DNA of 64,000 nucleotides from Platanthera guangdongensis (lineage: Eukaryota; Streptophyta; Magnoliopsida; Asparagales; Orchidaceae): assembly GCA_039583875.1 (NCBI GenBank), contig CM077149.1, forward strand, positions 21,155,194-21,219,193. Direction: 5' to 3'. Below, piece after piece: positions 6,182-49,514 of the stretch. A program made the position numbers and the translations under genes. Every line of letters begins with the position of its first letter. Position 1 is the first letter of the stretch. The notes under the pieces were generated by a model. The model was not told the origin of the DNA and searched no databases. It saw only the letters and a list, made by a program, of their open reading frames with translations.

Positions 6182-7324
6182 GTGACCAGAAGCAGTGCTG
6201 GGTCATCAGAATGTCGAGTTTCTGAGGCTAGTAGTGCACCGAATGATGCACCTGCAACACCTCCATCTGCTGAGACCAAACGATTGGTGGCCGAAGAAGT
6301 GTTTGCCATGATCAATGCGCAGCCTGCAAGGCAAATGCAGCAGCCTGCTCCTGCGATGGAGCAAGTACCTCTTCTAGAGGTTGAGCCGAGAAGAGTGGAA
6401 CAGGTAGTAGTGGAACCGTTGGTGCCGAGGAGGGCAACCGAGAGACATCTCAAACATTTCATGAGCTTTAATACTCTGGTATTCTCGGGGTTGGGAACCC
6501 CATCTAAAGCTAAAGACTGGCTCTCCCATATGAAGAGAGTCTTGACAGTGACGGAGACGGAGGAGTGGCAGATGACCACTAGAGCTACGTTCCTGTTGGA
6601 TGGAGACGCTAGGCTGTGGTAGGAGGGTTTTGAGCTGCATATATTGAGAGGAAGGCAACTTACAGACATTTCGATGGAAGAGTTCTCGAGACTGTTCTTG
6701 GCTAGGTACCTCCCTTCGACTCAGAGGATAGCTTTGGAGAATGAATTCCAAGGGTTGGTACAAGGAGAGAGTACCGTGGATGAGTATCTGCACGAGTTTA
6801 CTCGTTTGGGTTGGTACGCTAGCTCCACCATCGCGGATGAGGAGCGCAAAATAAACCGATCCTATGAAGGTTTGATAGATGACTTGAGGCTACTACTTTG
6901 AGGGCCTATGACGTAGGGCTTCTTGACCCTGGACAACGCGGCCCGGTCCTTGGAGAATGACATGAAGAATGTTCAAGCAAAGAAAAGCTTGGGTGATAAG
7001 AAGTCTGAGTTCAAGGTGCCAGCTAACTCAAAGTCTGGGTATCATAAGTTCTTTAAGAAGGCTAGGACTTCGGGTCCAGCTCCTTCTTCCGGTGCTTCTG
7101 GGGTGACTACGGGTCGGACACCGGGTGCATGTTTTACTTGTGGGAAGCCGGGGAACTTTGCCGTGACTACTGGAGCGGACGTCCAAAGTCCGAAAGGAAG
7201 CCGCGAGCAACTTATGAAGAGAAGGGTAAGGCGGTGGAGTCAACCGCGTCCCATTATGCTCCGGATCAACCAAGGGTTTATAATCTTTGCCAATAGGAGG
7301 CCATTAAACAAGCGGATGTGGTGA
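6182..7324 (+). pseudogene. Tekay-1 gag, broken
   Basis: A chromovirus Gag that would form the capsid-like particle. One frame carries the family core: AKDWLSHMKRVL, then ATFLLDGDARLW, then the helix EEFSRLFLARYLPSTQR and DEYLHEFTRLGWYA. It is cut by in-frame stops after the DARLW segment (about 6620) and at about 6899 and 6914. The CCHC zinc knuckle begins CFTCGKPG but then reads NFAVTT, so the histidine and last cysteine are lost and nucleic-acid binding would fail. The original start is uncertain because the region upstream of 6182 is also decayed. The matching region in Tekay-2 confirms the family. Confidence 0.85.
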
Positions 7325-10844: not shown

Positions 10845-12955
10845 TGTAATGCCCCGAAACTCAAAAGAGCGACGAGAGGCATTTTGAGCCAAGTTTGGAA
10901 TTTGGCAGGGGTCACACGGCCTGGGACACGGGCATGTCATAGGCCGTGTCCTTGGCGAGTTGTGGCGTGTTTGACACAGTATGCTGTGTCGACACAGAGT
11001 TTGTTGTGTCGACACAGGGTCTGCTGTGTCGACACAGAGTTTGTTGTGTCGACACAGGGTCTGCTGTGTCGACACAGGGTCTGCTGTGTCGACACAGGGC
11101 CAGCTGTGTCGATACAGGGTCAGCTGTGTCGACACAGGGCCTGCTGTGTCGACACAGGGCCTGCTGTGTCGACACAGGGCCTGCTGTGTCCACACAGGGC
11201 CTGCTGTGTCGACACAAAGTGTCGACACAGGGTGTGTTGTGTGGACACAGAGCGTCGACAGAGAGTGTCAACAGAGAGTGTCGACATGGAGTGTCGACAC
11301 AAGGGTCTTGGCAGGGTCTCGGCTAAATTTCCCGCATAGTTTAAGTTTGTCGCGGACGTGTCCTGCTCTGATTTGTGAACCGTGCAGTGTTCGGCTCAGT
11401 TTTTCCATGTAAGACCCGGATCGTAGCCGTACATTTATTTATGTTGGGATCTGACGACTGAAGGTTATTCCTATTGGGATATACCCGAGTGTAGGGTTTC
11501 AAAACCCTCATCTTCTGTTCGCTGGTTCTCTGTCTCAGTTCTAGAGAGAGGGGAGAGCAACGAGGAAGAAGTCTAGATCCGGTCACCGGCGGAGCTTCAA
11601 ATCGCGAACCGACTTCGGATCTACGGAGGCAAGGAGAGGGCGGTGCTTTTCATCCGCATACTTTTCCATGGGGCCAAGGAAGAACGCTAGGGTAACGATT
11701 CTCTACTTGAGCATGTGAAGCTCTACTTCTTTTGCATAGGGAAGCGCGCTCTCGCGAGTTTGCGGTGAGTTTGAGGCGTTCCTTCGGGTAAACATGAATA
11801 GTCCCTATTGTGTACATGTAGAGTCCGTAATCGAGAACGGATATAAGCATGATGTGTGAAGCCTACTCGGACAAGTTGGTCTGGATCGGTGATGTTGCAT
11901 TGCATAAAAGGCCGGAGAAGACTCTGTGCGAATGTTTGTTTTTCAGGTTTTCTGCGGGGTAGATTGCAACAGGGAGCCTTGGGGATTAACTCCAAGGTGC
12001 ACCCGAAAAACTGGGCAGATGCGTGGTTCTGCCAACTTGGTGGCCTGGGAGCCAACTTGAACATAACCGGGTTATGTGAAGTGTGTAATGGAAACGGGAC
12101 TCGGGAGAAGTTTGAGCCGCGCATATGGCTAAAATTGTCGTTGCGATGTGAGCACAGGTTAGACGGAACCGTACTTGTTCTATGTCATTCGGTGTGAGCC
12201 GTTGGCATAGATGAGGGTCTTCGGCAGTCTATGGCTTAAATTGACGTGACCCATGTCGGGAAGACAAAATGCTCATAGTTTGGCCGTCAAAGTGGCGGTG
12301 GTGAGACTGGGGTGTCTATAGCTTAAATTGACGTGGCATTGACCGGTTCACCGAGAATGTGCCCTGATTGCACGGGGCGTGTGGTCGTGCGTGCCAATGC
12401 CTGTGATGCAATATTTATATATACTACTTGGTTTATGCTAATAAAGTGCAGGGAAGGAGTATCGCCGCCCCGAATTGGGAGCGGGATCGCTATAATTTGG
12501 TCAGCATTGCTGACCGTTGCTTTGGTTTGCCACTGTTGTGGTGGATTGTGCTTGCAGGTGCTGCGGAGCTGAGCGGTGAATAGCGAGCTAAAGCCCAAGT
12601 TGATGTGCTGGCCCTCGAAGGCCTAATTTTCAGTGTTTCCTTTTATTCATGGATGGCCGGCCTACGTGCTGAGGTTTGAAAAACATGTAATTTGAGAAAA
12701 ATAATTGTAAGGCCATAAGGCCAATACTTGTGTATTTGTACTTCATTCCTTTTGGCTTTGTAGTGGACATTCATGCTAGTGTTGGGTTCTTTATTAATGC
12801 AAATTTTAATTACTTCCTCTAGAATGCTCTGTGTAGGACGTTGTTATTAGTTGGATGGTTTCCATTGAGTAACCGCCCGGTCTGTCTATGGTATATGGCG
12901 TCGAGCCCCGGCCGGACCTACTGCTATATGCTATGTGACAGATAGGGGTGCTACA
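10845..12955 (+). mobile_element. 3' LTR of Tekay-1
   Basis: It begins TGTAATGCCCCGAA and ends GGGGTGCTACA. It aligns by eye along its length with 3888-5955, with scattered substitutions, and differs most in the GTCGAC array, which is longer and more uniform in 20-bp units here. Confidence 0.85.
10980..11305. repeat. GTGTCGACAC palindrome array, Tekay-1 3' LTR
   Basis: About eleven to twelve 20-bp units (TGTGTCGACACAGGGYCTGC and the variant ending GAGTTTGT), then a short run of degenerate units. I count about 12 perfect GTGTCGACAC. The 5' LTR has only five 20-bp units but more 14-bp units. Confidence 0.9.
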
Positions 12956-30939: not shown

Positions 30940-30976
30940 TGATGCGTTGAACGACAAGTGTACAGGTTGCACAAGT
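30940..30976 (-). mobile_element. 5' LTR of the gag-only-like element, inner fragment
   Basis: 37 bp of the LTR (TGATGCGTTGAAC ... GCACAAGT) before Sirevirus-2. The remainder lies at 44057-45725. Confidence 0.75.
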
Positions 30977-31262
30977 TGAAAGATATGGTACCTAAACACC
31001 TAGAGGGGGGGGGGGTGAATAGGTGACCTAATCCTTTTCTTGATTCTTTGTTGGCAGTCAACAGTTTATAACACAGATTTCTGAATAAGTAATCACAGCA
31101 CACAGCAATTCTCAACACAGTACAATCACAGCACAGAATACACAAGATTTTATAGTGGTTCCCCAATCTTTGGGTACATCCACTTTCCCCCTTCGCCTAT
31201 CTAGCAGTGTACTAGATTCGGCCAAACTTCTCCACTAGCTCAGAACCCAACAAGGTTCCTAC

Positions 31263-31420
31263 CTCAGGCCCAAAGCCTTACACTCAGCCAAAAGGCCTAC
31301 ACTCAGCCACCCAGGCCTACACTCAGCCAATCAAGGCTTACACTCAGCCAATTAAAGGCCTACACTCAGAGTTCTTCAACTCCTACACTCAGGCACCAAG
31401 CCCTACCCTCAGCCTTTATA
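31263..31420. repeat. CCTACACTCAGCCAA tandem repeats in Sirevirus-2 LTR
   Basis: About seven imperfect units of 18-22 bp. The same block is at 42260-42418 in the 5' LTR. Downstream of the TATA box on the element strand, so it would be transcribed. Confidence 0.75.
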
Positions 31421-32038
31421 AAATAGGCTTACAATCACTCAGATCCTATGGATCTTACAAGTTTAAAATAGAAATTACAAATGCTAACTCTACAACTCAG
31501 AAAGGATGAGAGGAGTTGAGAGTTTCTTGAAGAGTTCTTGGAAAAACTCAGCTTGATCCAAACTGACTTAGCTTTCTTCAAAGCTTCTTGAGTAGAACTG
31601 AATTAGTCTGAATCTTCTGCAGTTGATCCTTGATCTCTGCTTCTTGAAATCCAGATGACTCTGAATTGTTCTTCTCAGCCTTAGTTCCAAAGACTGAATC
31701 CTTAGTTGGAGCTCTCTCTCTCCAACTACTTAGATCTGCAGTTGGACTGCCTGATCTTCTTGTGTTGATCCTCTATGTATCACTTCTTGATTTAATCTGA
31801 TCAACTACTTCAATTATTCTCACAACAAGTAATGATTGTGAACAACTTGACCACTTAACAACTTAACTTCTTATTCTGTAAACTGTGGGTGCCTATTTAT
31901 AGGCTTCCTTCATGGTAACCGGCTGATCCAGTTTATAACAGACTTTTGACTTCTCTGACAGTTGCTGTAGACCGGCTGGATTGGCAGCTGTCATGTCAAC
32001 CAGTCACTTCTTGAAATTCTCTAACTGTCAGTTAGTGT

Positions 32039-32912
32039 CGAGACTTTCTGTTCTTAAGTGTCGACACTTATAGACCAAGTGTCGACACATGTTGTGTAAG
32101 TGTCGACACAAGTCTACAAGGTGTCGACACAATTCCTTGTATGTCTCGACACAGTTTCTTCTGCATGTGTCGACACTGAAATTGAGTGTCGACACAAGTA
32201 CTTATACTTCATTCTTTATCTGTATTCTTCTAAGTGTCGACACATCTCCTTTGTGTCGACACATCTTCATGTGTTGAAACTGTCAAGTGTCGACACTGAT
32301 TCTTGGTGTCGACACAAGTCTTCATTCTTGATTCTTCAGCTGAGTGTCGACACATTCCCTTAGTGTCGACACTTATACTTAGAATAATTTACAGCTTTTC
32401 TGTTCTTTGCTAAGTGTCGACACATCTCCTTGTGTCGACACTTTCTTCTAGTGTTGAGTCTTCTGGTTATGTGTCGACACATTGTGCTGAGTGTCGACAC
32501 ATTCTTCAAGTGTTGACTTCTTTGAGTGTGTGTCGACACATTATGCTGAGTGTCGACACATTCTTCATATGTTGACTCTGCTGATTGAGTGTCGACACAT
32601 TGTGTTGAGTGTCGACACTTGTACTTAGTCTCTGCAGAATTTTGCTGGGTGTCGACACAACTCCAAGTGTCGACACTTTCTGATGTTGACTCAGCTCTTC
32701 TAGGTGTCGACACTTCTGCTAAGTGTCGTCACAGCTTTTCTGCATCCTTCTGCACTGAGTGTCGACACAGCTCCAAGTGTCGACACTTTCTGACTGGTGT
32801 CGACTCTTCTTCCCAGGTGTCGACACAATGACTCCAAGTGTCGACACTGCATGTCTGGGTGTCGACACAAGCTTTCTCAAGTGTCGACACTTGCCCTCTG
32901 GGTGTCGACACA
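32039..32912. repeat. GTGTCGACAC palindrome array, Sirevirus-2 3' LTR
   Basis: 30 perfect copies by my count, plus a few one-base variants (GTGTCGAGAC, GTGTCGTCAC, TCTCGACAC), in 870 bp. Spacing is irregular, with dissimilar sequence between copies. This differs from the 20-bp tandem units of Tekay-1, so the palindrome itself is what is conserved. Confidence 0.95.
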
Positions 32913-33055
32913 TGGACTTAGAATTTTTAGCTTCAGTCCAGTGTATTCCTAACCTGCACAAGTAACTCAAACAAACATCAAATACATTCTGATGTATATC
33001 ATTGAGTTAGGTGAGGCTTCTTCAAATCAGGTACATTTGACCAATGTACCCAACA

Positions 33056-33075
33056 ATCTCCCCCTATTTGGAGAA
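33056..33075 (-). other. Polypurine tract of Sirevirus-2
   Basis: On the minus strand AATAGGGGGAGAT immediately before the 3' LTR start TGTTGGGTAC. Confidence 0.9.
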
Positions 33076-33352
33076 GTCATAACCCTTAGTCAATGATATA
33101 CACCACTCATAATTAAAAATTACAAAATGATGTAAAGCATATAAATGACAACAGGGTAAACTTGAACATGTAATAAAGCACACATGTATACTTATTAAAC
33201 ATTGCAGAACAATTAAGAAACACACATATTTCAGAACATTCATACTATATTTATCATATACTGTCCCAATAATGTTCCTTATACATTTTCAATGAAGTAT
33301 TACAATGTTTATCACTTAACAGATTACAACAAGCATCAAGTTAATTCCTAAT

Positions 33353-36133
33353 CTAGTGCTGATCAGGTTCTTTAATAACAATGCCTTTTCCAGCTTTAAC
33401 TTGAGCTTTCACAGCAGCAGCAGCAGCAGGCTCAGCTTCAGCAGTCTTCTTCCCTTTAGAGTCCTTCTTCTTCTGTTCTTCAGCCTTGATCTTTTGTCTT
33501 TCAAAATAATGATAGGGCTTAGGAAAGTACTTGCTAGGCTCCACAGCTGTTGGAGGTAGCTTTCCTAACTTAGCCTTCCTTCTAAATTGGACAATTGCTT
33601 CCTGCCTACTCTCATGCTTTCTCCATTCAGCCTCTGAGAACCACTTGTTCCTCTCATGGGCATTGTCCTTGGCAGCTTTCCAGGCTGTGAGAATTATTGT
33701 TCTAGAAGTAGGGCTCCATTGTTCAAAATCTGGCTTTTGCTCAGCAATTTCCCTAAACTTCTTCTTTGACAGCCTAGTTTCTTCTTCCTTGTCCAAAGCC
33801 TCTTGCATTGCAGCTGAGATAGGTTGAACAACCTTTTCCAGAATAATATTAGGCTTGCCAGCAGGTGGACTATACATTGTGCTTATATCTGCATGAATCA
33901 TTTCAAAGTCTGGAGGTGGATAGATTACATCAGCCACTGCTTGTTGCTCACCTCCAAGATATGCATTTTGAATACCAGATTCAGCCACTTCATTGTCATC
34001 ACACAGGGGAGGATATCCAAGTGTAGCCCTGATAGAATTGGAAATCCATTTTGCATGCTCAGAACTGGCCTTGACTAACACTCTCTCCCCCTTTATGACT
34101 TCTTGGGCCACATGATCTCTCACATCATCTTTCTGGAATCGGATTTGGCTATCCAAATACCTTATGCCCTCTTTAAAGAAAGGTCTAAGCTTTGTAAGCT
34201 GTTCTGAAATGACCTTCTGTGAGTCTTTTATTGCAGTCTGTACAGCAGCAATCTCTGCTTGAAATAGCTTATCAAAATCAGCCTTGGCAGCAGCAGTGGA
34301 GGTTGATGGTTCATCAGACTTTTTCTTGAGTTCAGTGACTATGGCATTGTGAGATGCAGTCAAATTATCATTCATCCTGAGTTGATTCTCCAGCACATAA
34401 CCTTGTTTTAGTGCTATATCATCAACTTGAGTCTTTATTTTCTCTTGATGGTTTGCCAAATAGACTACTGCATGAGCACCCTTTGTAAAACAATCAGTCA
34501 TCTCTGTTTTATTAAGGTTCATTTCAAACCTTATTGACTTGATTTCCTGGCCTAGATCTGATTGTAGTGCTTTGTGCCCTTCATCAACATAAGTTTCTAA
34601 AGCTTTCCTTTGTTCATCCATCTTGATTTGCATGGCAAGCAATAGAGCACTGTAATCAGTGGATGGAGCTTGTTGAACTAAGGAATGTTGAGCAACTGTT
34701 TGGAGAGCCTTCTTATAGCTCTGGCTTCTTCTTTTGAAAACAAAGAATTTCTTTTTCTGAGCTTGCTCAGCTTCATCATCTTCAGAGTCTGATGTACTGG
34801 CTATATCCACCCTATCCTTAGGGCTGGATTGTTTTTCAGTATGCACATCTTGTGCCGGCTCAGTATCTAGTCTTATAGGCTCTTTCACAACTTCAATGTT
34901 CTCCCCCTCAGCAGCAGCATTCTTTACTGTATCAGCATCATTCTTTTCCATATCAAAATCTTCTTGATCTAAGTTCAAAAAGAGATCTTCCATTGTATAT
35001 TCTGCTGGAGACTGTGCAGGAGATGTTCTGGTTTCATCAGCTATAACAGATGTGTCTTGGTGAACAACATCTGGTTCTTGAGTTGCTGGCTGATTTTGCT
35101 GATGGTCATCAGACAAATCAGAATTTATTATAGAGAAATCTAATGTATTAAGGTCAGTAAGTACCTCTTGAATGAGGAGGGTGGCTTGTTCACTCTCCAG
35201 TGTAGATGGTTCTGCTACACCTGGAAGCTCCCCCTGGATGTCAGCTGCCTCCTGAGGAGCAGGTGTCTTCTCTGCAGGCACATCAACTGGACTTTCAGGA
35301 GTGAAGACCACATGTTCTTCACTGCCTGAGCTGCTGGAGGACTCTTGAGGCACAGCAGCAGTCTTCCTCTTCTTCCTGGGAGGAGAGTCTCTCTTAGTAG
35401 CTTGTTTCTCAGGGGTGGTCAATTCCTTTGATACCAGCACCCTTTCCCATCTAGAGAATATCCTGGAGTCCATTCTCCTCATATGATTGATCTTAGATCC
35501 TGCAGCAGTGCTCATTACCTCTGGAATTGATCCAGCCAGGTAGAGACTTAGTATCCTACCCAGATTGGGCTTCTTCAGGCTTTCTTTTACTTTCTCATAA
35601 ACCACCATTGACCAATCTGTTTTCAGATTGAAGATGATTCTGGTCATGACTTCAAACATGGAGGCAGACACCCTGTCATGCCCTCCTGGCTTGCTCAGTA
35701 TTACCTTGCCCACTACTTCAGACAAGAACTTGCCTTGAATATTCATACCTTTCCTGTTAAAGACTGATCCCACCTTCATCTTTGGATCCAGTCCACACCA
35801 AGTAAGAGCTTCCCTGGTCTTAGAAGCAGTTACGTCCTCTTCATCTTGTACTTTAGGTAGCTGAAGTACCTTTCTTAAAGACTTGGGTGAAATTTTGACT
35901 TTGGTGCCATGCACCCTGGACTTAATCCTGAAGCCTGAGTCATCTATAGATGCGCCAGAAAGGAATTCAATGACTTCCTTCTTCCATATTTTCGTTGGTT
36001 CTGAAACCAAGAATTCCAAGCCTGAATTGACAATTAGGGTTAGCACTGATTTGATTTCTTGGTCGCTGTCGTCAAATGCGCCTCGCACAAGCTCATAGCC
36101 TTCGTTTACGTTCTCTTCCAGCTTGGGAGCCAT
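33353..36133 (-). CDS. Sirevirus-2 third ORF (post-pol), function unknown
   Basis: The open frame extends up to 36334, but I place the start at 36133 (MAPKLEENV, 926 residues), because the upstream 67 codons lie in promoter-like, palindrome-bearing DNA. Residues 1-240 resemble the helical domain annotated in plants as putative plant transposon protein (REALTWCG, MNIQGKFLSEVVGKVIL). Then come a basic nuclear-localisation-like cluster RKKRKTA, a long acidic Ser/Glu-rich part, helical coiled-coil-like segments (QMDEQRKALETYVDEGHK-type), and a Lys/Ala-rich C-terminus. I see no signal peptide, no hydrophobic membrane segment and no envelope-like features, though this is where some Sireviruses carry an env-like gene. 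The frame is intact in a young element, which argues it is used. Confidence 0.8.
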   Translation of the reverse strand: MAPKLEENVNEGYELVRGAFDDSDQEIKSVLTLIVNSGLEFLVSEPTKIWKKEVIEFLSGASIDDSGFRIKSRVHGTKVKISPKSLRKVLQLPKVQDEEDVTASKTREALTWCGLDPKMKVGSVFNRKGMNIQGKFLSEVVGKVILSKPGGHDRVSASMFEVMTRIIFNLKTDWSMVVYEKVKESLKKPNLGRILSLYLAGSIPEVMSTAAGSKINHMRRMDSRIFSRWERVLVSKELTTPEKQATKRDSPPRKKRKTAAVPQESSSSSGSEEHVVFTPESPVDVPAEKTPAPQEAADIQGELPGVAEPSTLESEQATLLIQEVLTDLNTLDFSIINSDLSDDHQQNQPATQEPDVVHQDTSVIADETRTSPAQSPAEYTMEDLFLNLDQEDFDMEKNDADTVKNAAAEGENIEVVKEPIRLDTEPAQDVHTEKQSSPKDRVDIASTSDSEDDEAEQAQKKKFFVFKRRSQSYKKALQTVAQHSLVQQAPSTDYSALLLAMQIKMDEQRKALETYVDEGHKALQSDLGQEIKSIRFEMNLNKTEMTDCFTKGAHAVVYLANHQEKIKTQVDDIALKQGYVLENQLRMNDNLTASHNAIVTELKKKSDEPSTSTAAAKADFDKLFQAEIAAVQTAIKDSQKVISEQLTKLRPFFKEGIRYLDSQIRFQKDDVRDHVAQEVIKGERVLVKASSEHAKWISNSIRATLGYPPLCDDNEVAESGIQNAYLGGEQQAVADVIYPPPDFEMIHADISTMYSPPAGKPNIILEKVVQPISAAMQEALDKEEETRLSKKKFREIAEQKPDFEQWSPTSRTIILTAWKAAKDNAHERNKWFSEAEWRKHESRQEAIVQFRRKAKLGKLPPTAVEPSKYFPKPYHYFERQKIKAEEQKKKDSKGKKTAEAEPAAAAAVKAQVKAGKGIVIKEPDQH

Positions 36134-36159
36134 TAGGGTTTTGAGAATTAGTCTTGAGA

Positions 36160-36620
36160 TGAGAGAAATGTCGACACAAGAGTTTAGGTCTCGAAACTTT
36201 GAAAGCGTGTCGACAATCAAAGACAGAACCCTATTTATACCTTTCTTGTTTGAAGACGAACAGGCGGGATGAATTTCTAATGATGTGTCGACACTGTCAA
36301 TAAGTGTCGACACTGACTTATAATGTCTCGACACTCATGTGTCGACACAAATTTAGTCAACAGATTTTATGTGTCGACACTTGGTTAAGTGTCGACACCA
36401 CTATACTCGACATGTGTCGAGACTTTACTTAGAAAAATTCTGAGTAAAACTTAAGTGTCGACACTTTATTGGATGTGTCGACACCTATTCGACATGTGTC
36501 GACACTAACATTCTGAAGTGTCGACACTAACTTCCTAGATGTGTCGACACCATTTTCCTGAAGTGTCGACACTTACTATTCTGTGTCGACATAGACTTGT
36601 CTATGTGTCGACACCTTTTT
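36160..36620. repeat. Internal GTGTCGACAC array between pol and third ORF
   Basis: 12 perfect GTGTCGACAC copies at 36285-36615, several one-base variants, and two half-sites nearer the ORF (about 36168 and 36210). It fills the gap between the pol stop (36647) and the third-ORF start (36133). Confidence 0.93.
36232..36239 (-). promoter_or_regulatory. Putative internal TATA box for the third ORF
   Basis: On the minus strand GGTATAAATAGGG, about 100 bp upstream of the ATG at 36133 and just downstream of the internal palindrome array. The LTR has the same TATAAATAGG word downstream of its own array. Confidence 0.6.
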
Positions 36621-36646
36621 ACTTAGCCAATTTTTGTTCTGTATAC

Positions 36647-39600
36647 TTAGTCTAAATTTATCATACCTAGTTCAATTTTGAACCTATTAAACTTAGCTTC
36701 TTCTAAGGGCTTAGTAAACATATCAGCTATCTGATTATCTGTTTTAACATATTCAAGTGCAATATCATTTCTTTCTACATGCTCCCTAAGAAAGTGATAT
36801 TTAATCTCAATATGTTTAGTTCTACTATGTGATACAGGATTATTAGCTATGGAAATAGCACTAGTAGAATCACAATAAAGTGGAGTTCTACTTACCTGAC
36901 ATCCATAGTCTTCTAGCTGATGTTGAATCCACAGAAATTGAGCACAGCAACTTCCTGCAGCTACATATTCTGACTCAGCTGTGGAGATGGCCACACTGGT
37001 TTGCTTCTTACTACTCCATGAAATGAGTCTTCCACCTAGGAATTGACAGGATCCAGTAGTGCTCTTTCTATCTTCTTTGCATCCTGCAAAGTCTGCATCT
37101 GAATAACCTGTTAGATCAAAATCTCCATTCCTAGGGTACCAGAGGCCTAGATAAGGTGTGCCCTTTAGATATCTCAAGATTCTCTTGACTGCAGTCAAGT
37201 GAGACTCTTTAGGGCAGGATTGATACCTGGCACAAACACATGTAGCATACATAATGTCAGGTCTACTTGCAGTCAAGTAAAGTAGGGAGCCAACTATCCC
37301 TCTATACAAGGTTTCATCCACAGGTTTCCCTGCATCATCCTTGCTTAGAGACATACTTGACCCCATAGGAGTCTTCATGGTACTGGAGGAATCCATACCA
37401 TATTTCCTTATGAGTTTTAGGGTGAACTTTGACTGACATATGGACAAGCCACTTTCAGTCTGTTTAACTTGGAGACCCAAGAAAAACTTCAGTTCTCCCA
37501 TACTACTCATTTCAAATTGACTTTGCATAAGCTTTGCAAACTTTTTGCAAAGGCTACTTTCAGTAGACCCAAATATAATGTCATCTACATATATTTGGAC
37601 AAGTATTACTTTGCCTCTAGATTCCCTAAGGAATAGAGTCTTATCTATTTTCCCCCTTGTGAACTTGTTCTCAATGAGGAAACTAGATAGGGTTTCATAC
37701 CAAGCTCTAGGAGCTTGCTTTAACCCATACAATGCTTTCCTAAGTCTATAGACATAATGAGGAAGAGTAGGATCAACAAAACCTGAAGGCTGCTCCACAT
37801 ATACTTCTTCTTTTAAATTACCATTAAGGAATGCTGACTTCACATCCATTTGGTATACTTTGAATCCTTGGTAGGTTGCATAGGCCAAGAACATCCTGAT
37901 GGCTTCCAGTCTGGCTACTGGAGCAAAGGTTTGATCAAAATCAATACCTTCTTCTTGCCTATATCCTTTTGCAACCAGTCTTGCCTTATTCTTAATGATG
38001 ACTCCTTGTTCATCTAACTTGTTTCTGTAGATCCACTTTGTTCCTATCACATTGTGATCTTTAGGCTTAGGAACTAAGTCCCAAACCTTGCACCTCTTGA
38101 ACTGGTTTAGCTCTTCCTGCATAGCTTCAGTCCACTGTGGATCTTGTATTGCTTCTTCAAATTTCTTTGGTTCTATTTGAGACAGAAAACTTGAATATAC
38201 TGCAGCATTCTGATTTCTGCTCCTTGTCTGAACACCTTGTCTTGGATCTCCAATGATCAGCTCCACTGGATGATCTCTTAGATGCCTGTTGGCTGGAGGC
38301 ATCCTTACTTCTGGTTGTACTTCTTCAGCATCTTCATCATGCTGAGTTCCTTGAACTTCTTCAGCTCCTGGTACATGTAGTTCTCCCCCTGGACATAAGC
38401 CATCTTCTTCTACTTGCTGTCTTGCAGCAGGTACATCTTCCATGGTTAGCTTGTCCATCTTCTTAGAAAGACCTGTGGGGCTGCACACACTACCAGACAA
38501 CTCATTGTTAATAAGAAGTGTCTCATCAAAAACTACATGCACAGACTCCTCAACAACTTGTGTAGTCAAGTTGTAGACTCTATAAGCCTTACTATTACTG
38601 TTGTACCCAACAAACACTCCCTCTTGGGATTTGGCAGCAAACTTAGTTAAGTAAGACTTCCCATTGTTAAGTATGAAGCATTTACAACCAAAAATCCTGA
38701 AATAGGATAGATTTGGTTTCCTGCCTTTCACTACTTCATAGGGGGTCTTGTTTAACCTTTTAGTGATGGTAGCCCTATTTATCACATGGCATGCAGTGTT
38801 TACTGCTTCAGCCCAGAAATATTCTGGCAGTGATGAATCACTTAATAGGGTTCTACCAGCCTCTATCAAGGTTCTATTTTTCCTTTCAGCAATGCCATTT
38901 TGCTGAGGTGTTCTAGGTGAAGAGAATTCTTGAAATATCCCATAGTCTTCACATAGTTTTGTCATGCTTTCAGATTGAAACTCTGTACCATGGTCACTTC
39001 TAATTTTGACCACTGTACAGTTCAATTCATTCTGAATTTGCTTAACAAAACTGTGGAAGACACTGGGTGTTTCAGATTTCTGCTTTAAGAAGAACACCCA
39101 GGAAAACCTTGAGTAGTCATCAACAACTACAAAGGTGTAGACCTTCCTACCTAAGCTGTGAACTGGCATTGGACCAAATAGATCCATATGCAAGAGGTAT
39201 AAACACCTCACAGCATCCTTGTTGTCAATGCTTCTAAAGGTGGATTTAGTCTGCTTGCCCTTTTGACAAGCTGAGCAAATGCCATCTTTGACACACTTAA
39301 CTTGAGGACCATTCCTCACTAACTCTTTACTAAAGAGTTTGCTAATAGTCTTGTAATTAAGATGAGCAAGCCTCTTGTGCCACTTGACACATTGAGAGAC
39401 TGTCTCATCAGCTACAAGACAAACTGGAGAACTATTGTTCTCAACCATAATGTCTAAACAATAGACATTTCTCTTCCTATAACCTGTCAAAATGATCTTT
39501 TGATCACTTGACCTCTTGATATGACAACCATTTTTAACAAATGAGATGTCATACCCTACATCACTTAATTGACTTATACTAATGAGGTTATGTTTCAAAC

Positions 39601-39820
39601 CTTTAACATAAGCCACTTGAGTAATGGTAACAAGGTTAGAAGAAATGTTACCAAACCCTTTGATGATTCCTTTTTCAGAACCACCAAAGGTCACCTTTGG
39701 ACCATTTTTGATTGGGATGTAGTCCTTCAGTAGTCCCCTAGTTCCAGTCATGTGTCTGGAACATCCACTATCCAAGTACCATGTAGGGGTATGGCCACTT
39801 GGATTTTCCTGCAAAACAAA
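36647..39820 (-). CDS. Sirevirus-2 pol (PR-INT-RT-RH), intact
   Basis: A copia polyprotein of about 1055 residues. Numbering from the first codons after the gag stop: protease active site DSG at 15-17; GAG-pre-integrase zinc residues in WHKRLAHLN and CSACQKGK (145-185); integrase catalytic D211 (HMDLFG), D274 (RSDHGTEF) and E310 (AERKNRT), the last two 35 residues apart as in DDE(35) enzymes; RT from about 578, with YVDD at 742-745; RNase H from about 895 ([26 protein letters not shown]). No internal stop or frameshift. There is no ATG directly after the gag stop: the frame is the same as gag, separated by a single UAA, so expression probably needs readthrough or splicing. Confidence 0.93.
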
Positions 39821-41860
39821 TTAATGAACCTTAGAACCCAAAGTAAACTTGGGTCCTTGGTGATTGTTAGTTTGCAATTTGACATAGCTACCTGCTGTCT
39901 TTCCAACAGGTAACTTGCTACACAACTTGGCACTGGCATTGTGCCAACAATCCAAAGCAAAGTGGCCAACCTTGCCACAGCACCAACATTCAAATTTGTT
40001 GTACCTTTGCTTAGGTTCTGACTTAGCTGTCTTAACTACAGCAGTCTTGTTGAATGTTGGGGCTTTGCCCTTGGACTTGGACTGATCCTGAACAGTCCTA
40101 GCTGGATTAACAAAACCCAGTCCAGTCTTTCCTTTATGATGAACAAAATCATCAATCAAGGGTAGCACTGATTTAGGTTTTGAATACCTAGCTGCTAGCT
40201 CTTTCTCCTTCTGAAGATTAATCTCCAGTTTCTTAATTTGATCATTCTTAAATGTAATAGTACCCATCTGAATCACAGTAATGTGTTTCAGCCTAGCCAC
40301 TTCATTCAGTTTTTGATCATAATTCTTCTCATAATCTATTGCAGCTGCCTTGAGATCAGCAATTTCCTTGGCAAAATTTTTGGCTAGGGTCTTGCTTTTC
40401 TTATAGGCTTGCAATAGTACTTGATATTCATCTAGGAGTTGATGAATATCTCCCTCAGACTCAGATATATTCTCATCACTTGATGAAGAATAATCTGACT
40501 CTGAACTAGAACTGGAATCAGAACTTTGAGTTAAACCTTGTACCTGACTGGGTCCTGGCTGCTCCAGGTTTTTAGTACTTTCAGTCAAAGCCATCAGTCC
40601 TTGGCTTTGACAGTCTTCTTGCTCATAGATAGATTCCATGATTTGCATAAACTCTTCTTCTTCTTCAGCAAATAGCCCAATATAGGCTTCAGCATCTGTC
40701 TCAGTGTCTGAAGAAGACATATCTGAAAGAGTCTTCTCATTCTTTGCAACAAAGGACTTCTCCTTCTTTCCTTTGAAGTGTGTTTTCTTTTTGTCACTGG
40801 ATTCTTTCCTTCTTTCAGGACAGTCTGCAATAACATGGCCCTGTCTATTGCAGCAGTAACAAATTATCTTGGATCCAGTTGCCTTACTAGTCTTGGTCCT
40901 TTTCTTGTCCTTCTTTGAAGGCTTCTTTTCCTGATACTGAACCTCTTTCCCTTTGGAAGATGAAGGTCTAGACCTCCACTGTTTCTTCTTAAGGAACTTC
41001 TGAAAATGTCTGGTGAATGCAGCAAAGTCTTCATCACTTTCACTGCTTGTAGATTTTGTACTTTCTGACTCTTCAGATTCTGATTCAACTACCTCAGGAG
41101 GAGGAGTTGATGACTTGGTCCTGCTCTTTCTGGGTACATCTGACTTAAAGGCAACAGTCTTTTCTCTGTATTCAGTCCTTGTTGACTTTTCTTCTTCTTT
41201 TCTCACTGACAATTGCATCTCATAAGATAACAACTTGCCAAAAAGTGTGGGAGGAGGAATTTCTCCCAACTTTGCCATTTCTCTGATGGCACAGATCTTG
41301 GTGTCCCAGTCTTTGGTGAGGGACCTCAAGAATTTATCATTCAACTCATAGTTTGTGAACTCTCTTCCATATGACATGAGTTCATTTACAATTCTATAAA
41401 ATTTCTTGTAGCATTCAGTGATGCTATCCCCTCTTCCTTGCCTAAAGCTTTCATATTCTTGATTAAGCAAGGACTTCCTATCTTGCCTTACTTCTTCAGA
41501 ACCTTCCATATAGACAATGAGGGTGTCCCACATTTCTTTTGCAATTTTACAGTGAATAAGGTTCTGGAAGGTGGCATCATCAATTGCACTAACTATTATA
41601 TTCTGTGCTCTTTTGTCCATGGTTGCTAGGACAATCTCATCCTTGGTCATTTCAGAGAAATCCTTTGGAGTCCTCTGATTTGCATCCAATACTGAAATCT
41701 TCATGGGCACATATGGCCCTTCTTTGACTGTGATGTATATCCTAGGGTCAGAGGCTTCCATAAAAAGCCTAACCCTCTCTTTCCAGATCCCAAAGATCTC
41801 TTTTCTGCATATAGGTAGTTTCATTGAACCCAACTCCTTATGATTCTCTGAAGAACCCAT
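39821..41860 (-). CDS. Sirevirus-2 gag, intact
   Basis: 679 residues starting MGSSENHKELGS. It has a UBN2-type capsid core (GIWKERVRLFMEA, AKEMWDTLIVYMEGSEEV, YESFRQGRGDSI), a Lys/Ser-rich middle, and two CCHC zinc knuckles: CYCCNRQGHVIADC near residue 335 and CWCCGKVGHFALDC near residue 635. An acidic Ser-rich stretch and a coiled-coil-like segment (about 470-570) lie between them. It would form virus-like particles in the cytoplasm and bind element RNA. It ends in a UAA that is in frame with pol. The start is the first ATG after the leader, about 100 bp from the primer-binding site. Confidence 0.92.
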   Translation of the reverse strand: MGSSENHKELGSMKLPICRKEIFGIWKERVRLFMEASDPRIYITVKEGPYVPMKISVLDANQRTPKDFSEMTKDEIVLATMDKRAQNIIVSAIDDATFQNLIHCKIAKEMWDTLIVYMEGSEEVRQDRKSLLNQEYESFRQGRGDSITECYKKFYRIVNELMSYGREFTNYELNDKFLRSLTKDWDTKICAIREMAKLGEIPPPTLFGKLLSYEMQLSVRKEEEKSTRTEYREKTVAFKSDVPRKSRTKSSTPPPEVVESESEESESTKSTSSESDEDFAAFTRHFQKFLKKKQWRSRPSSSKGKEVQYQEKKPSKKDKKRTKTSKATGSKIICYCCNRQGHVIADCPERRKESSDKKKTHFKGKKEKSFVAKNEKTLSDMSSSDTETDAEAYIGLFAEEEEEFMQIMESIYEQEDCQSQGLMALTESTKNLEQPGPSQVQGLTQSSDSSSSSESDYSSSSDENISESEGDIHQLLDEYQVLLQAYKKSKTLAKNFAKEIADLKAAAIDYEKNYDQKLNEVARLKHITVIQMGTITFKNDQIKKLEINLQKEKELAARYSKPKSVLPLIDDFVHHKGKTGLGFVNPARTVQDQSKSKGKAPTFNKTAVVKTAKSEPKQRYNKFECWCCGKVGHFALDCWHNASAKLCSKLPVGKTAGSYVKLQTNNHQGPKFTLGSKVH

Positions 41861-41960
41861 GTTCTTGATTTTCTTGAAACTGTTTCCTGTTTCCTGACTT
41901 ATACTGAATCTGCCAAACTGGATCTCCTCAGACGGTTAGTCCTGATTTTGAGGAACCTCC

Positions 41961-41972
41961 CTCTGATACCAC
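41961..41972 (-). other. Primer-binding site of Sirevirus-2
   Basis: On the minus strand TGGTATCAGAGG, two bases inside the 5' LTR. It matches initiator-Met tRNA except at the last base. Confidence 0.9.
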
Positions 41973-42889
41973 TTGAAAGATATGGTACCTAAACACCTAG
42001 AGGGGGGGGGGTGAATAGGTGACCTAATCCTTTTCTTGATTCTTTGTTGGCAGTCAACAGTTTATAACACAGATTTCTGAATAAGTAATCACAGCACACA
42101 GCAATTCTCAACACAGTACAATCACAGCACAGAATACACAAGATTTTATAGTGGTTCCCCAATCTTTGGGTACATCCACTTTCCCCCTTCGCCTATCTAG
42201 CAGTGTACTAGATTCGGCCAAACTTCTCCACTAGCTCAGAACCCAACAAGGTTCCTACCTCAGGCCCAAAGCCTTACACTCAGCCAAAAGGCCTACACTC
42301 AGCCACCCAGGCCTACACTCAGCCAATCAAGGCTTACACTCAGCCAATTAAAGGCCTACACTCAGAGTTCTTCAACTCCTACACTCAGGCACCAAGCCCT
42401 ACCCTCAGCCTTTATAAAATAGGCTTACAATCACTCAGATCCTATGGATCTTACAAGTTTAAAATAGAAATTACAAATGCTAACTCTACAACTCAGAAAG
42501 GATGAGAGGAGTTGAGAGTTTCTTGAAGAGTTCTTGGAAGAACTCAGCTTGATCCAAACTGACTTAGCTTTCTTCAAAGCTTCTTGAGTAGAACTGAATT
42601 AGTCTGAATCTTCTGCAGTTGATCCTTGATCTCTGCTTCTTGAAATCCAGATGACTCTGAATTGTTCTTCTCAGCCTTAGTTCCAAAGACTGAATCCTTA
42701 GTTGGAGCTTTCTCTCTCCAACTACTTAGATCTGCAGTTGGATTGCCTGATCTTCTTGTGTTGATCCTCTATGTATCACTTCTTGATTTAATCTGATCAA
42801 CTACTTCAATTATTCTCACAACAAGTAATGATTGTGAACAACTTGACCACTTAACAACTTAACTTCTTATTCTGTAAACTGTGGGTGCC

Positions 42890-42897
42890 TATTTATA
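42890..42897 (-). promoter_or_regulatory. TATA box of Sirevirus-2 5' LTR
   Basis: On the minus strand GCCTATAAATAGGC, present in both LTRs, about 140 bp downstream of the last palindromes. Confidence 0.7.
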
Positions 42898-43032
42898 GGC
42901 TTCCTTCATGGTAACCGGCTGATCCAGTTTATAACAGACTTTTGACTTCTCTGACAGTTGCTGTAGACCGGCTGGATTGGCAGCTGTCATGTCAACCAGT
43001 CACTTCTTGAAATTCTCTAACTGTCAGTTAGT

Positions 43033-43908
43033 GTCGAGACTTTCTGTTCTTAAGTGTCGACACTTATAGACCAAGTGTCGACACATGTTGTGTAAGTGTC
43101 GACACAAGTCTACAAGGTGTCGACACAATTCCTTGTATGTCTCGACACAGTTTCTTCTGCATGTGTCGACACTGAAATTGAGTGTCGACACAAGTACTTA
43201 TACTTCATTCTTTATCTGTATTCTTCTAAGTGTCGACACATCTCCTTTGTGTCGACACATCTTCATGTGTTGAAACTGTCAAGTGTCGACACTGATTCTT
43301 GGTGTCGACACAAGTCTTCATTCTTGATTCTTCAGCTGAGTGTCGACACATTCCCTTAGTGTCGACACTTATACTTAGAATAATTTACAGCTTTTCTGTT
43401 CTTTGCTAAGTGTCGACACATCTCCTTGTGTCGACACTTCCTTCTAGTGTTGAGTCTTCTGGTTATGTGTCGACACATTGTGCTGAGTGTCGACACATTC
43501 TTCAAGTGTTGACTTCTTTGAGTGTGTGTCGACACATTATGCTGAGTGTCGACACATTCTTCATATGTTGACTCTGCTGATTGAGTGTCGACACATTGTG
43601 TTGAGTGTCGACACTTGTACTTAGTCTCTGCAGAATTTTGCTGGGTGTCGACACAACTCCAAGTGTCGACACTTTCTGATGTTGACTCAGCTCTTCTAGG
43701 TGTCGACACTTCTGCTAAGTGTCGTCACAGCTTTTCTGCATCCTTCTGCACTGAGTGTCGACACAGCTCCAAGTGTCGACACTTTCTGACTGGTGTCGAC
43801 TCTTCTTCCCAGGTGTCGACACAATGACTCCAAGTGTCGACACTGCATGTCTGGGTGTCGACACAAGCTTTCTCAAGTGTCGACACTTGCCCTCTGGGTG
43901 TCGACACA
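43033..43908. repeat. GTGTCGACAC palindrome array, Sirevirus-2 5' LTR
   Basis: Same composition and order as the 3' LTR array; no copy-number difference seen. Confidence 0.95.
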
Positions 43909-44056
43909 TGGACTTAGAATTTTTAGCTTCAGTCCAGTGTATTCCTAACCTGCACAAGTAACTCAAACAAACATCAAATACATTCTGATGTATATCATTG
44001 AGTTAGGTGAGGCTTCTTCAAATCAGGTACATTTGACCAATGTACCCAACACAAGT

Positions 44057-46640: not shown

Positions 46641-49514
46641 TGTCACAACCCGCATTTTTTCAACGGTAAAATCGTATCAGAGTAAGAGAAAACACGTGTC
46701 GTGATGCCACGTCGTGCAGGGGATAACTGCACACGCTCAGACAAAACTCCAGACCTTAGATTTTTAAGGAAACGCGTTGATTAAATATGAAAGAAATTCA
46801 GTTAAGTTGGATGGCCGTATCCCTCGGCATAGTGGATCAGCTAGTCCATAGGTAAAACTATATCTATACGCAGCAGAAAATACTTTGGTTCAATTAAGTA
46901 GACACCCTAAATAAGCACGAGAGTCCCCGGGGGGACGACTCATGGTATGCACGACTCTAAGGTGATTATTATAGGTATAAAAGACAGTGTTTTACGCTGA
47001 GGAAAAATAGTGTCATTGTTTTAGAAAACATGTTATGCATGAAGTACATATAGCATTACTTTTAGGTTTTAAAATATCTAACATGCAAGCTAGCATAAAT
47101 CCTTCCCAGAAGCAAGTAACCAACCACGAAAAGGCAAAATCAGCAGTTTAATTTCATATCCAGCATCACAAGGAGCCACCAGTGGGCATCAACAACCTGA
47201 CACGAACCCACTAGCGAGTATGTATGTCTATACAGAAAAGTAAGGAACTACCTCACAACAAAAAGGGGATCAGCTATCTCAGCAACCCTAGAGGCCACCA
47301 ACAGCCCCTCCAAAAGAACTAGCCGCAGAACTGGCTACAACCTGGACCTGAGGCATTCAAGAAAGGAACACCTCAGCAAAGAAACAATCAAGAGGTAAAA
47401 AATAGAGCAATAAATTAATTAGTAAATTAAGAAGAAGGGTTTACCAACCCGGCAACAAACTGCAATAAGCAAAAGAAAAGGGGATGACAGTAAGAAAAGA
47501 ATGCTGTCAAAAACACCACAGAGCGCACCAAGTGCGAGCAATACAACCAATATGCCTTACCAAGAGAGAGCCTGCAATAGCATCAAGACATATTAATATG
47601 CCAAAAGAAGGGAAAGCATAATCAGGAAAAGGGACTAACAGTCCTAACACGTGGGCAAGTGGCAGTGGTCAAAATATGGATCTGAATACATAACCAAAAT
47701 CAGACCTAAAAAGGGCTAAGGGGTCAAACAGTGGTAGCTTTAGGGTCCCACACACACCAACCCAAACCGGGGTAAAAGGTGGTGGCCACAGCTCTCCACA
47801 TAAAACCACCCCTCCAGAGGCCACCAAAACTCCACCACCTACCACAACCCAAGAGTCGGCATGCAGAAATTAGCCGAACACCCAATGCCTCCCCCTGGGG
47901 AAAAAGTAACTCTAACAATCCTAAGAAACACACGAACCCAAGACAAAAACATCGGGTCCAGCCGACGCGGCCTTGCACGCCTAACCCGAACCAACCCCGA
48001 GTCTACCTGACCCAAAACAAGCGCATCACCAGTGTCGTCACGATGTGTCGACACCACGATAAGCCGGTGTCGACACAAGGTGTCGACACAACCGCGGCCG
48101 GTGTCGACACCAAGTGTCGACACCACTGTAGCCGGTGTCGACACCTTGTGTCGATACTGCCGCTGCTGGTGTCGACACCAAGTGTCAACACCACTGCGGC
48201 CGGTGTCGACACATGGTGTCGACACTGCCGCTGCGGGTGTCGACACCAAGTGTCGACACAACTGCGGCCGGTGTCGACACATGGTGTCGACACTGCCGCT
48301 GTGGGTGTCGACACCAAGTGTCGACACCACTGCGGCCGGTGTCGACACATGGTGTCGATATTGCCGCTGCGGGTGTCGACACCAAGTGTCGACACCACTG
48401 CAGCCGGTGTCGACACATGGTGTCGACACTTCCGCTGCTGGTGTCGACACCAAGTGTCGACACCACTACTGGCCGGTGTCGACACCAAGTGTCGACACCA
48501 AGACTGGTCGGTGTCGACACCACAGTGTCGACACCCCAGCTGGCTACAGGAGCCATATCCAGCAACGACCAAAAAAACAAGAACGGGGATTCTCTCCCTC
48601 TCTCGAGTACAACCTCCATCGGCAATGGTAACTACTCGACCTAGACCGAACCAAATCTGCCCCGAATAGACACAATCCCTCAGGAAAACTGAGATTTAAC
48701 TGGAACTTTCTACACTAACCACGGTATGATTGGGAACAAGCCCTAGCTTACACCTAAGATCTAAAAAAGAAAGAGATTAAAGATTAAATCGAAAGAAAGA
48801 CAGAGATCAGCTTTGGCAAGGATGAGGGGACATCACTTGCCTAAATACCAAAAAACTTGGTCGGCGGCCTCCCCCGCTCACGGATCTGACCGCAGAGTAG
48901 CAAGCTGAGGAGCAGAAAGAATGCAGATCCCGGCGAGGGCAGTCCAGATCCACTCTCGAAACCGAATTCCGACCGCTAAATCTCCAGGAATCGGCGTCCG
49001 AAGGCTAGGGTTGACCGGCGGTTCTCTTCCTCATGCACAGGCGGCGGCTTCTATCAAGCAGAGACACAGGAAAAGGAGAAAAGGAACCCAGCTCTAGTTC
49101 TAACCCAAGACTATATATATCAGATTTAATAATAAACAATCAACATAATAATTACTATTTACACCTAATATCAAAACAACCCGAAACCCGAAACGTCTCG
49201 GAAAAAGACGAAATTTACGCCGCAGCTAAAAACCCATGCTACGAACGCAACTACGAAGTCAAAATTAGCATTCGACGAACAAAACCCGGGATAACACCTC
49301 CCGAAGCAAAAACACAAGCATTCCCTAAGAGGCCCAACCGAGTCATCAAACGGACTCCGGCTAGCTGGGGAATCTTGCTAACAGGCTACAAACAGGCTAC
49401 ACAGGGAACCCTAAGAGCTAAGACCACGCTGTACAATGGCAAAAAAACCGGAAATACGCCATCGTAACGCCAGCCAAAGATCAAACAAAGCACAGAAAAA
49501 CTGGGGGCGTTACA
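46641..49514 (-). mobile_element. 3' LTR of Tekay-3
   Basis: 2874 bp. On the element strand it runs TGTAACGCCCCCAG ... GGTTGTGACA. A TATATATAG box on the minus strand lies at about 49112-49120. The GTCGAC array is at 48043-48535. Confidence 0.82.
48043..48535. repeat. GTGTCGACAC palindrome array, Tekay-3 LTR
   Basis: 26 perfect copies by my count, in a higher-order unit of about 67 bp with four palindromes: CCGGTGTCGACACATG, GTGTCGACACTGCCGCTGC, GGGTGTCGACACCAA, GTGTCGACACCACTGCGG. This is the densest array in the window. The equivalent part of the 5' LTR is deleted. Confidence 0.95.

What the first reader, a model, noticed from the sequence alone, without database searches (positions are those of the whole stretch)
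36133..36647. Possible internal promoter in Sirevirus-2 with the same plan as its LTR promoter
Between the pol stop and the third-ORF ATG lie 12 perfect GTGTCGACAC palindromes, then GGTATAAATAGGG on the minus strand, then the ATG about 100 bp further on. The LTR has the same order on the same strand: 30 GTGTCGACAC copies, then TATAAATAGG. Pol is the main genomic product and plant copia elements normally have one promoter. Here the third ORF seems to have its own copy of the promoter grammar. The motif density is far above chance, and both frames bounding the array are intact in a young element. That this is a promoter is inference.
Basis: partly seen in the sequence, partly recalled or inferred. 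Interest (0 to 1): 0.9.

Follow-up and report, generated by a model that had tools for sequence, protein, structure and literature searches.

The report
Retrotransposon gene with its own promoter
A young jumping gene in a large plant genome, probably an orchid's, repeats the control layout of its end promoter (a run of identical palindromes, then a TATA box) just ahead of its third gene, and the conservation of that layout in relatives suggests this gene is read from a second promoter of its own, as was proposed for such elements years ago but not pinned down.

Summary
In detail: 12 exact GTGTCGACAC, then TATAAATAGGG, then the ORF3 ATG 106 nt on, in an intact Sirevirus-type copia element (30977-44051, minus strand, TSD CAAGT). 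Comparison backs the promoter reading. In seven aligned gap copies TATAAATA is 7/7, although two are only 49-58% identical to the window outside the motifs. Genome-wide, palindrome-N30..60-TATAAATA occurs 24,682 times (reversed control 5). Of 50 listed sites picked without using the TATA, 47 have it, and one of the three misses is not a gap. ORF3 is under purifying selection (dN/dS 0.11-0.26 in four usable pairs). gag and pol hold 0 CpG in 5,208 bp, whereas the gap plus the first 300 nt of ORF3 form a CpG island. In other lineages of the genome the palindrome has changed in LTR and gap together. Arrays before ENV and the internal-promoter hypothesis are published (Bousios 2010, citing Peterson-Burch and Voytas 2002); the conserved internal TATA, same-genome switching and CpG pattern add to it. 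Splicing to ORF3 is the main rival; no RNA data were available. The palindrome is also arrayed in LTRs of a Ty3/Gypsy element and has 2,076,908 copies in the genome.

The parts
30977..44051 (-). Sirevirus-type Ty1/copia element, with 5-bp target-site duplication CAAGT at 30972-30976 and 44052-44056
   Evidence: LTR pair; TSD read directly
41973..44051 (-). 5' LTR
   Evidence: 99.76% identical to the 3' LTR
30977..33055 (-). 3' LTR
   Evidence: starts TGTTGGG after the AGGGGGAG polypurine tract
43054..43907 (-). 5' LTR array: 30 exact GTGTCGACAC
42890..42897 (-). LTR TATAAATA box (in the 3' LTR at 31894-31901)
32058..32911 (-). 3' LTR array: 30 exact GTGTCGACAC
39821..41860 (-). gag ORF, 679 aa, 0 CpG
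   Evidence: Retrotran_gag_2; CpG count
36647..39814 (-). pol ORF, 1055 aa, integrase before reverse transcriptase, 0 CpG
   Evidence: rve, RVT_2; CpG count
36285..36614 (-). internal array: 12 exact GTGTCGACAC
   Evidence: the 6 other aligned copies have 6-12 exact palindromes in the gap
36232..36239 (-). internal TATA box TATAAATA; transcription start inferred about 30 nt downstream, near 36208
   Evidence: 7 of 7 aligned copies; 47 of 50 listed genome sites; start site is inference
36134..36231 (-). presumed 5' leader of the ORF3 mRNA, carrying two more TGTCGACA cores
   Evidence: inference
33353..36133 (-). ORF3, 926 aa, weak PF20167 (Transposase_32, 23.5 bits, cut-off 45), no predicted membrane segment, basic stretch RKKRK at residue 253
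   Evidence: dN/dS 0.11-0.26 in four usable pairs
35834..36646 (-). internal CpG island: the gap (23 CpG) and the first 300 nt of ORF3 (9 of the 11 CpG of ORF3)
33058..33065 (-). terminal polypurine tract AGGGGGAG; further copies at 34085-34092, 34901-34908, 35228-35235 (in ORF3) and 38383-38390 (in pol)

Best explanation
The gap between pol and ORF3 is a second, internal RNA polymerase II promoter. A protein that recognises GTGTCGACAC binds the array of about 12 sites, as it binds the 30 sites in the LTR, and recruits transcription to the TATA box at 36232-36239. Transcription would start near 36208 and give a short-leader mRNA ending in the 3' LTR, whose first ATG opens ORF3. The LTR promoter makes the genomic gag-pol RNA; the internal one makes ORF3 separately, so that its amount and timing need not depend on pol. 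Shown: the sequence layout, its conservation, the selection on ORF3, the CpG island, and the joint change of LTR and gap palindromes in other lineages. Inferred: that a protein binds, that transcription starts there, and which protein it is (a host factor or ORF3 itself).
For: Seven gap copies: TATAAATA 7/7, 106-108 nt before the ORF3 ATG in six and 122 nt in L022, with L017 and L022 only 58% and 49% identical to the window outside the motifs. Genome counts 12,429 + 12,253 of palindrome-N30..60-TATAAATA against 1 + 4 for the reversed pattern. 47 of 50 listed sites chosen without the TATA have it; the three misses are TATATATA, TCTAAATA and an LTR end that is not a gap. ORF3 dN/dS 0.122 (L009), 0.141 (L012), 0.108 (L017), 0.261 (L024). 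gag and pol 0 CpG in 5,208 bp, while the gap has CpG o/e 1.16 and 9 of 11 ORF3 CpGs lie in its first 300 nt; in L009, L012, L017 and L022 10 of 12, 8 of 9, 8 of 9 and 11 of 17 lie in the first 400 nt. Joint switching: ACTCGAGT 19 and 17 in the LTR and 10 and 9 in the gap of two copies, none of TGTCGACA, with TATAAATA in both gaps; TCGTCGA/TCGACGA 6 in the LTR and 6 in the (cut) gap of L018b.
Against: No transcript data of any kind. Shared ancestry of copies makes the counts non-independent, and L009 and L012 were chosen because palindromes had been seen there. Not all relatives fit: of 8 gaps in the even sample, 5 have exact TATAAATA, two have TATA-like variants (L018b TATAAAAT, L028 TATATATC) and one (L018a) has none that is canonical. 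The matching LTR promoter is not always seen either: the two LTRs of the ACTCGAGT lineage have TATATAA and not TATAAATA, and the scanned LTR part of L018b has no TATA of the form searched. L018b and L028 have textbook splice acceptors (TTTTTTTGCAG, TTTGTTGCAG) just before the ORF3 ATG, which fits splicing rather than an internal start. The acceptor-like TTTGTTTTGCAG|G at the gag-pol junction makes spliced RNAs of this element plausible.
Confidence: 0.74

Rival explanations
1. ORF3 is made from LTR-initiated RNA by splicing: a donor in the leader or gag joins an acceptor just upstream of the ORF3 ATG, as predicted for the env-like genes of Athila and BAGY2; the gap array then has another role.
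For: An AG with 80% pyrimidines before it lies 19 nt before the ATG in the window. L018b and L028 have strong acceptors there. A strong acceptor-like site sits at the gag-pol junction and is kept in L017 and L024. Predicted acceptors for env-like mRNAs of BAGY2 and Athila are cited in Bousios 2010.
Against: In the window lineage the candidate is an AAG site; it reads AAG in window, L024, L016 and L009 and CAG in L012, a TAG lies nearby in L017, and none is kept in L022, whereas the TATA is 7/7. It does not explain a TATA box, its near-fixed distance to the ATG, or the CpG island.
Confidence: 0.17
2. The gap array acts on the LTR promoter, or on silencing, and not on a local start: an enhancer or anti-silencing platform inside the element, or a source of hairpin RNA for siRNAs.
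For: Every palindrome can pair with every other one in RNA, and palindrome clusters in maize Sirevirus LTRs attract small RNAs (Bousios 2016 as described in PMC10760457, passages read). VANC proteins of Arabidopsis VANDAL elements bind arrayed motifs in non-coding regions and remove methylation (PMC5735166, passages read).
Against: It does not predict a conserved TATA box and ATG at near-fixed distance, nor a CpG island extending into the start of ORF3.
Confidence: 0.07
3. ORF3 is translated from genomic RNA by stop-codon readthrough of pol, as in SIRE1, or by internal ribosome entry, and the promoter-like look is incidental.
For: Readthrough is the published route for SIRE1 ENV (cited in Bousios 2010).
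Against: pol and ORF3 are separated by 513 bp, and the stretch from the pol stop to the ATG has 8, 13 and 7 stop codons in its three frames. Internal ribosome entry cannot be excluded by sequence, but leaves the TATA conservation unexplained.
Confidence: 0.02

Closest known systems
Repeated palindromic motifs (RM boxes) of envelope-containing Sireviruses (Bousios et al. 2010, PMC2829016)
   Same: High-copy palindromes in the LTR upstream of a TATA box, and again upstream of the third gene; CpG islands at both; internal promoter proposed. Nine ENV-containing elements are listed there with 2-18 boxes before ENV.
   Different: The palindrome here lacks the CGG-CCG core (there only Tnd-1 lacked it); an internal TATA is present and conserved, where they state that they could not conclusively identify a promoter; the same palindrome is also in Ty3/Gypsy LTRs in this genome.
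Foamy virus internal promoter and transactivator Tas (starts of abstracts in a search listing only)
   Same: A retroelement with an LTR promoter and an internal promoter before a late gene; here the same sites lie in both.
   Different: Tas is reported to bind both promoters; nothing here shows that ORF3 binds DNA. No sequence relationship is claimed.
VANDAL/VANC anti-silencing in Arabidopsis (PMC5735166, passages read)
   Same: Arrayed short motifs in non-coding parts of the element, differing between related lineages that encode a fast-evolving protein.
   Different: A DNA transposon (recalled); VANC carries DUF1985 and DUF287, and ORF3 hits neither at E up to 1. I saw no tie of VANC motifs to a TATA box in the passages read.
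SIRE1 ENV expression by stop-codon suppression (cited in PMC2829016, and PMC3414828; the original not read)
   Same: Sirevirus with a third ORF after pol.
   Different: [quoted passage not shown] here by a 513-bp gap with array and TATA.

Membership tests
Sirevirus (Ty1/copia) | copia order, integrase before reverse transcriptase | tested here: met
   rve at residues 207-303 and RVT_2 at 576-817 of pol
Sirevirus (Ty1/copia) | polypurine tract AGGGGGAG 10 bp upstream of the 3' LTR, and extra copies in the linker | tested here: met
   terminal copy 33065-33058 with the LTR starting at 33055; further copies at 34092, 34908 and 35235, all inside ORF3, and one in pol at 38390; about 0.2 expected in the element
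Sirevirus (Ty1/copia) | PBS TATCAGAGC | tested here: inconclusive
   TATCAGAGG, 8 of 9 bases
Sirevirus RM boxes | palindromic array in the LTR upstream of a TATA box | tested here: met
   30 palindromes, TATA 156 nt downstream of the last
Sirevirus RM boxes | array upstream of the third gene in elements that carry one | tested here: met
   12 exact palindromes in the gap
Sirevirus RM boxes | CGG-CCG core | tested here: not met
   The core here is TGTCGACA; other lineages of the genome use ACTCGAGT or TCGTCGA-n7-TCGACGA
Sirevirus ENV-like protein | transmembrane domain (named with coiled coils as common features in PMC3414828, passages read) | tested here: not met
   maximum 19-residue hydropathy 1.14, no window above 1.6
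Sirevirus ENV-like protein | coiled-coil domain | tested here: inconclusive
   long helices at 450-705 in a model of pLDDT 38.7, too low to trust
Foamy-virus-like two-promoter circuit | shared control sites in LTR and internal promoter | tested here: met
   same palindrome in both, changing together in other lineages; that the sites are bound is not shown
Foamy-virus-like two-promoter circuit | the internally expressed protein activates both promoters | not testable with these tools
   ORF3 models too poor to judge a DNA-binding fold (pLDDT 38.7 and 46.6)
VANC-type anti-silencing protein | DUF1985 domain | tested here: not met
   Pfam scan of ORF3 at E up to 1 gives PF20167 (23.5 bits, cut-off 45) and L31 (15.4 bits, cut-off 22) only

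The most novel reading that the evidence does not exclude
A plant retrotransposon runs a two-promoter positive-feedback circuit like that of foamy viruses: ORF3, which has no membrane segment and carries a nuclear-signal-like basic stretch, is the factor that recognises its own lineage's palindrome, switching on the LTR and its own internal promoter and keeping both hypomethylated. When ORF3 diverges, the palindrome changes in both places at once. Unrelated Gypsy elements that carry the same palindrome would then be borrowing that factor.
Probability: 0.2. Interest if true: 0.87.

Novelty: new variant of a known kind. Interest (0 to 1): 0.62.

Why it matters
How the third gene of Sireviruses is expressed has been open since an internal promoter was guessed (2002, as cited in Bousios 2010) and motif clusters were found (2010) without a promoter. 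This genome offers a clean case: thousands of copies with a fixed palindrome-TATA-ATG layout, CpG-free coding regions that throw the two control regions into relief, and lineages that changed palindromes in step. It gives exact positions for 5' end mapping and a short DNA site for finding the bound protein. If the protein is ORF3, plants have a retroviral-style feedback circuit; if it is a host factor, one plant protein has about two million potential sites, most of those sampled lying in transposons.

Tried and rejected
Structure of ORF3: whole protein (pLDDT 38.7) and residues 1-240 (46.6) were too poor to use, so no fold search was run. Homologues of ORF3: the same 7 Platanthera gene models in both searches (the first scored only the 7,994 candidates sharing most words); some fuse pol to ORF3, but these are predictions and were not taken as RNA evidence. 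Helical phasing of palindrome spacings: of 10 arrays only 3 (window LTR, one Gypsy LTR array, the 48-kb array) gave low Rayleigh values, and tandem duplication explains those equally, so it is inconclusive. The palindrome as a word in the literature: no paper in the library, searched as a word start. A whole-genome count of a palindrome pair typical of the 48-kb array was asked four times and never answered. Readthrough of pol into ORF3 was rejected on the stops in the gap. One printed line (spacers of the Gypsy array) came from a coordinate slip and was not used. The LTR of L017 is missing (another sequence follows the polypurine tract) and that of L027 was not reached, so neither entered the LTR comparison; two other copies of the L027 lineage were used instead (2 of 40 places listed). 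The control check on LTR mismatches was ungapped and misleading (25), so the BLAST identity is quoted.
Full report
What is there. The element lies on the minus strand at 30977-44051, with a perfect 5-bp duplication CAAGT on both sides and LTRs 99.76% identical. It has gag, pol (integrase before reverse transcriptase) and a third ORF of 926 codons. The Sirevirus polypurine tract AGGGGGAG starts 10 bp before the 3' LTR, with three further copies inside ORF3 and one in pol.

The observation. Between the pol stop and the ORF3 ATG lie 12 exact GTGTCGACAC (15 TGTCGACA cores), TATAAATAGGG 45 nt beyond the last exact palindrome, and the ATG 106 nt after the start of the TATA. Each LTR has 30 copies and then TATAAATAGG, but 156 nt beyond the last palindrome. 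Chance is excluded: 118 exact copies in the window against 0.05 expected.

Other copies. The genome of 4,245,561,818 bases has 2,076,908 exact copies of the palindrome; the same letters read backwards have 2,228. In 20 stretches of 10 kb taken at even steps along one contig of 274 it is the commonest 10-mer, 204 times. In that sample tblastn with pol and ORF3 of the window led to 8 gaps; L018 has two, of which L018b was found by ORF3 alone and is cut by the end of the locus (sequences). Four (L016, L017, L022, L024; pol C-terminus 73-99% identical) have the GTGTCGACAC array and TATAAATA. L027 has an ACTCGAGT array and TATAAATA. L018b and L028 have TCGTCGA/TCGACGA-type arrays with TATAAAAT and TATATATC. 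L018a has six TTCTCG/CGAGAA and no canonical TATA. The pol C-termini of L018a, L027 and L028 are 60-65% identical to the window's. L009 and L012 were added because one search showed palindromes at the right distance, so they are not an unbiased choice. A search with 231 bp around the TATA and ATG scored 40 of 2,554 candidates, all 100% identical, so the family has many recent copies.

Conservation. In the alignment of the window with L024, L016, L009, L012, L017 and L022, TATAAATA is invariant, while 36 of 120 other ungapped columns between the last palindrome and the ATG are. A search for palindrome-N15..30-TTCATCTTC, which ignores the TATA, gave 6,517 + 6,543 sites, control 0 + 0. Of its 50 listed sites that fall within the range listed, 47 have TATAAATA. 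The three others read TATATATA, TCTAAATA, and an LTR end that is not a gap. Such sites favour well-kept copies, since the palindrome had to be exact, and all 50 lie on one contig.

Is ORF3 a gene? Codon comparison with the window gives dN/dS 0.122 (L009), 0.141 (L012), 0.108 (L017) and 0.261 (L024); L016 gave 0.042 on 90 codons only, with synonymous sites near saturation, and L022 was saturated. So a protein has been kept, although the copies L012, L017 and L022 themselves contain stops. It has no membrane segment (maximum hydropathy 1.14) and one basic stretch RKKRK. The envelope-like label is therefore not supported for it; the authors of MASiVEdb also doubt that the Sirevirus gene is a true envelope gene (PMC3414828, passages read).

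CpG pattern. gag and pol together have 0 CpG in 5,208 bp, and pol has 0, 0, 0 and 1 in L024, L012 (part), L016 (part) and L017. The gap has 23 CpG (o/e 1.16; 0.96-1.15 in the six other copies) and the LTRs 38 each, 30 of them in TGTCGACA. In ORF3, 9 of 11 CpGs lie in the first 300 nt; in L009, L012, L017 and L022 it is 10 of 12, 8 of 9, 8 of 9 and 11 of 17 within 400 nt. The island thus reaches past the palindromes into coding sequence, where no binding site explains it; an unmethylated promoter would. CpG loss is not equal in all lineages: pol parts of L018a and L027 have o/e 0.33 and 0.50, that of L028 0. The genome sample has CpG o/e 0.65. No palindrome in the window LTRs or gap has the singly deaminated form; genome-wide GTGTTGACAC occurs 52,596 + 52,342 times, reversed control 9,546 + 9,441.

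Joint switching. Two copies of the L027 lineage (places, sequence) have 10 and 9 ACTCGAGT in the gap and 19 and 17 in the 3' LTR, and no TGTCGACA in either; their gaps have TATAAATA, their LTRs TATATAA. L018b has 6 TCGTCGA/TCGACGA in the gap and 6 in the LTR, and none elsewhere in its 10 kb. L028 has 8 in the gap and 10 in the LTR of the looser form TCGAYGA, and 8 more beyond the LTR slice at 6401-6720. LTR and gap thus share whichever palindrome the lineage uses. Bousios 2010 tabulates one consensus per element for linker and LTR boxes across species (Table 3); here the switch is seen among lineages of one genome.

Mechanism. The simplest reading is one DNA-binding factor per lineage acting on two promoters. 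Steps shown: layout, conservation, joint change. Steps inferred: binding, start site, the identity of the factor. Splicing is the serious rival, because L018b and L028 have strong acceptors next to the ATG and because the gag-pol junction of this element has TTTGTTTTGCAG|G after an in-frame TAA; L024 has the same and L017 TGTGTTGCAG|G after a TAA. In the window lineage the matching site before ORF3 is weak and not kept in L022.

Prior work. Bousios et al. 2010 report the arrays in LTR and before ENV, CpG islands at both, and support for an internal promoter that they could not conclusively identify (passages and one section read). MASiVEdb (2012) names an internal promoter among the expression mechanisms without detail in the passages seen. 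What is added here is the conserved TATA, the CpG-free body, a palindrome without CGG-CCG, the same-genome switching, and the presence of the same palindrome in Ty3/Gypsy LTRs (3888-5953 and 10845-12953, 8 and 12 exact copies). The palindrome is not in the held papers as a word start. The searches for internal promoters in such elements listed, besides these two, papers of which I read passages of one (PMC6696364; nothing on the point) and the listing only of the rest; only 12 of 85 were listed. Subscription papers are not in that library.

Noticed in passing
window 36647-41860: gag and pol contain no CpG at all in 5,208 bp (no NCG or CGN codon); pol of L024, L012 (part), L016 (part) and L028 (part) also has none and L017 one, but L018a and L027 keep some (o/e 0.33, 0.50). 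This looks like long-term methylation decay or active avoidance and deserves its own study.
   Followed up: partly
window 4023-4275 and 10986-11300: The same palindrome is arrayed in both LTRs of a Ty3/Gypsy element (8 and 12 exact copies) with different spacer sequence, which suggests convergent use of one factor by unrelated elements.
   Followed up: partly
window 48045-48534; L031 7296-7885: A third kind of array with alternating spacings of about 13 and 21 bp: 26 exact copies in the window, in or beside a Gypsy element, and 32 in L031, whose element was not classified.
   Followed up: partly
window 39807-39850: gag ends in TAA in frame with pol, followed at once by TTTGTTTTGCAG|G; stop and acceptor-like site are kept in L024 and, slightly changed, in L017. 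Pol may be made from a spliced RNA.
   Followed up: partly
whole genome: GTGTCGACAC has 2,076,908 exact copies in 4.25 Gb and is the commonest 10-mer in a 200-kb sample of one contig.
   Followed up: partly
L018 9540-10000; L028 1140-1720: Related lineages have strong splice acceptors immediately before the ORF3 ATG, so lineages may differ in how they express ORF3.
   Followed up: partly
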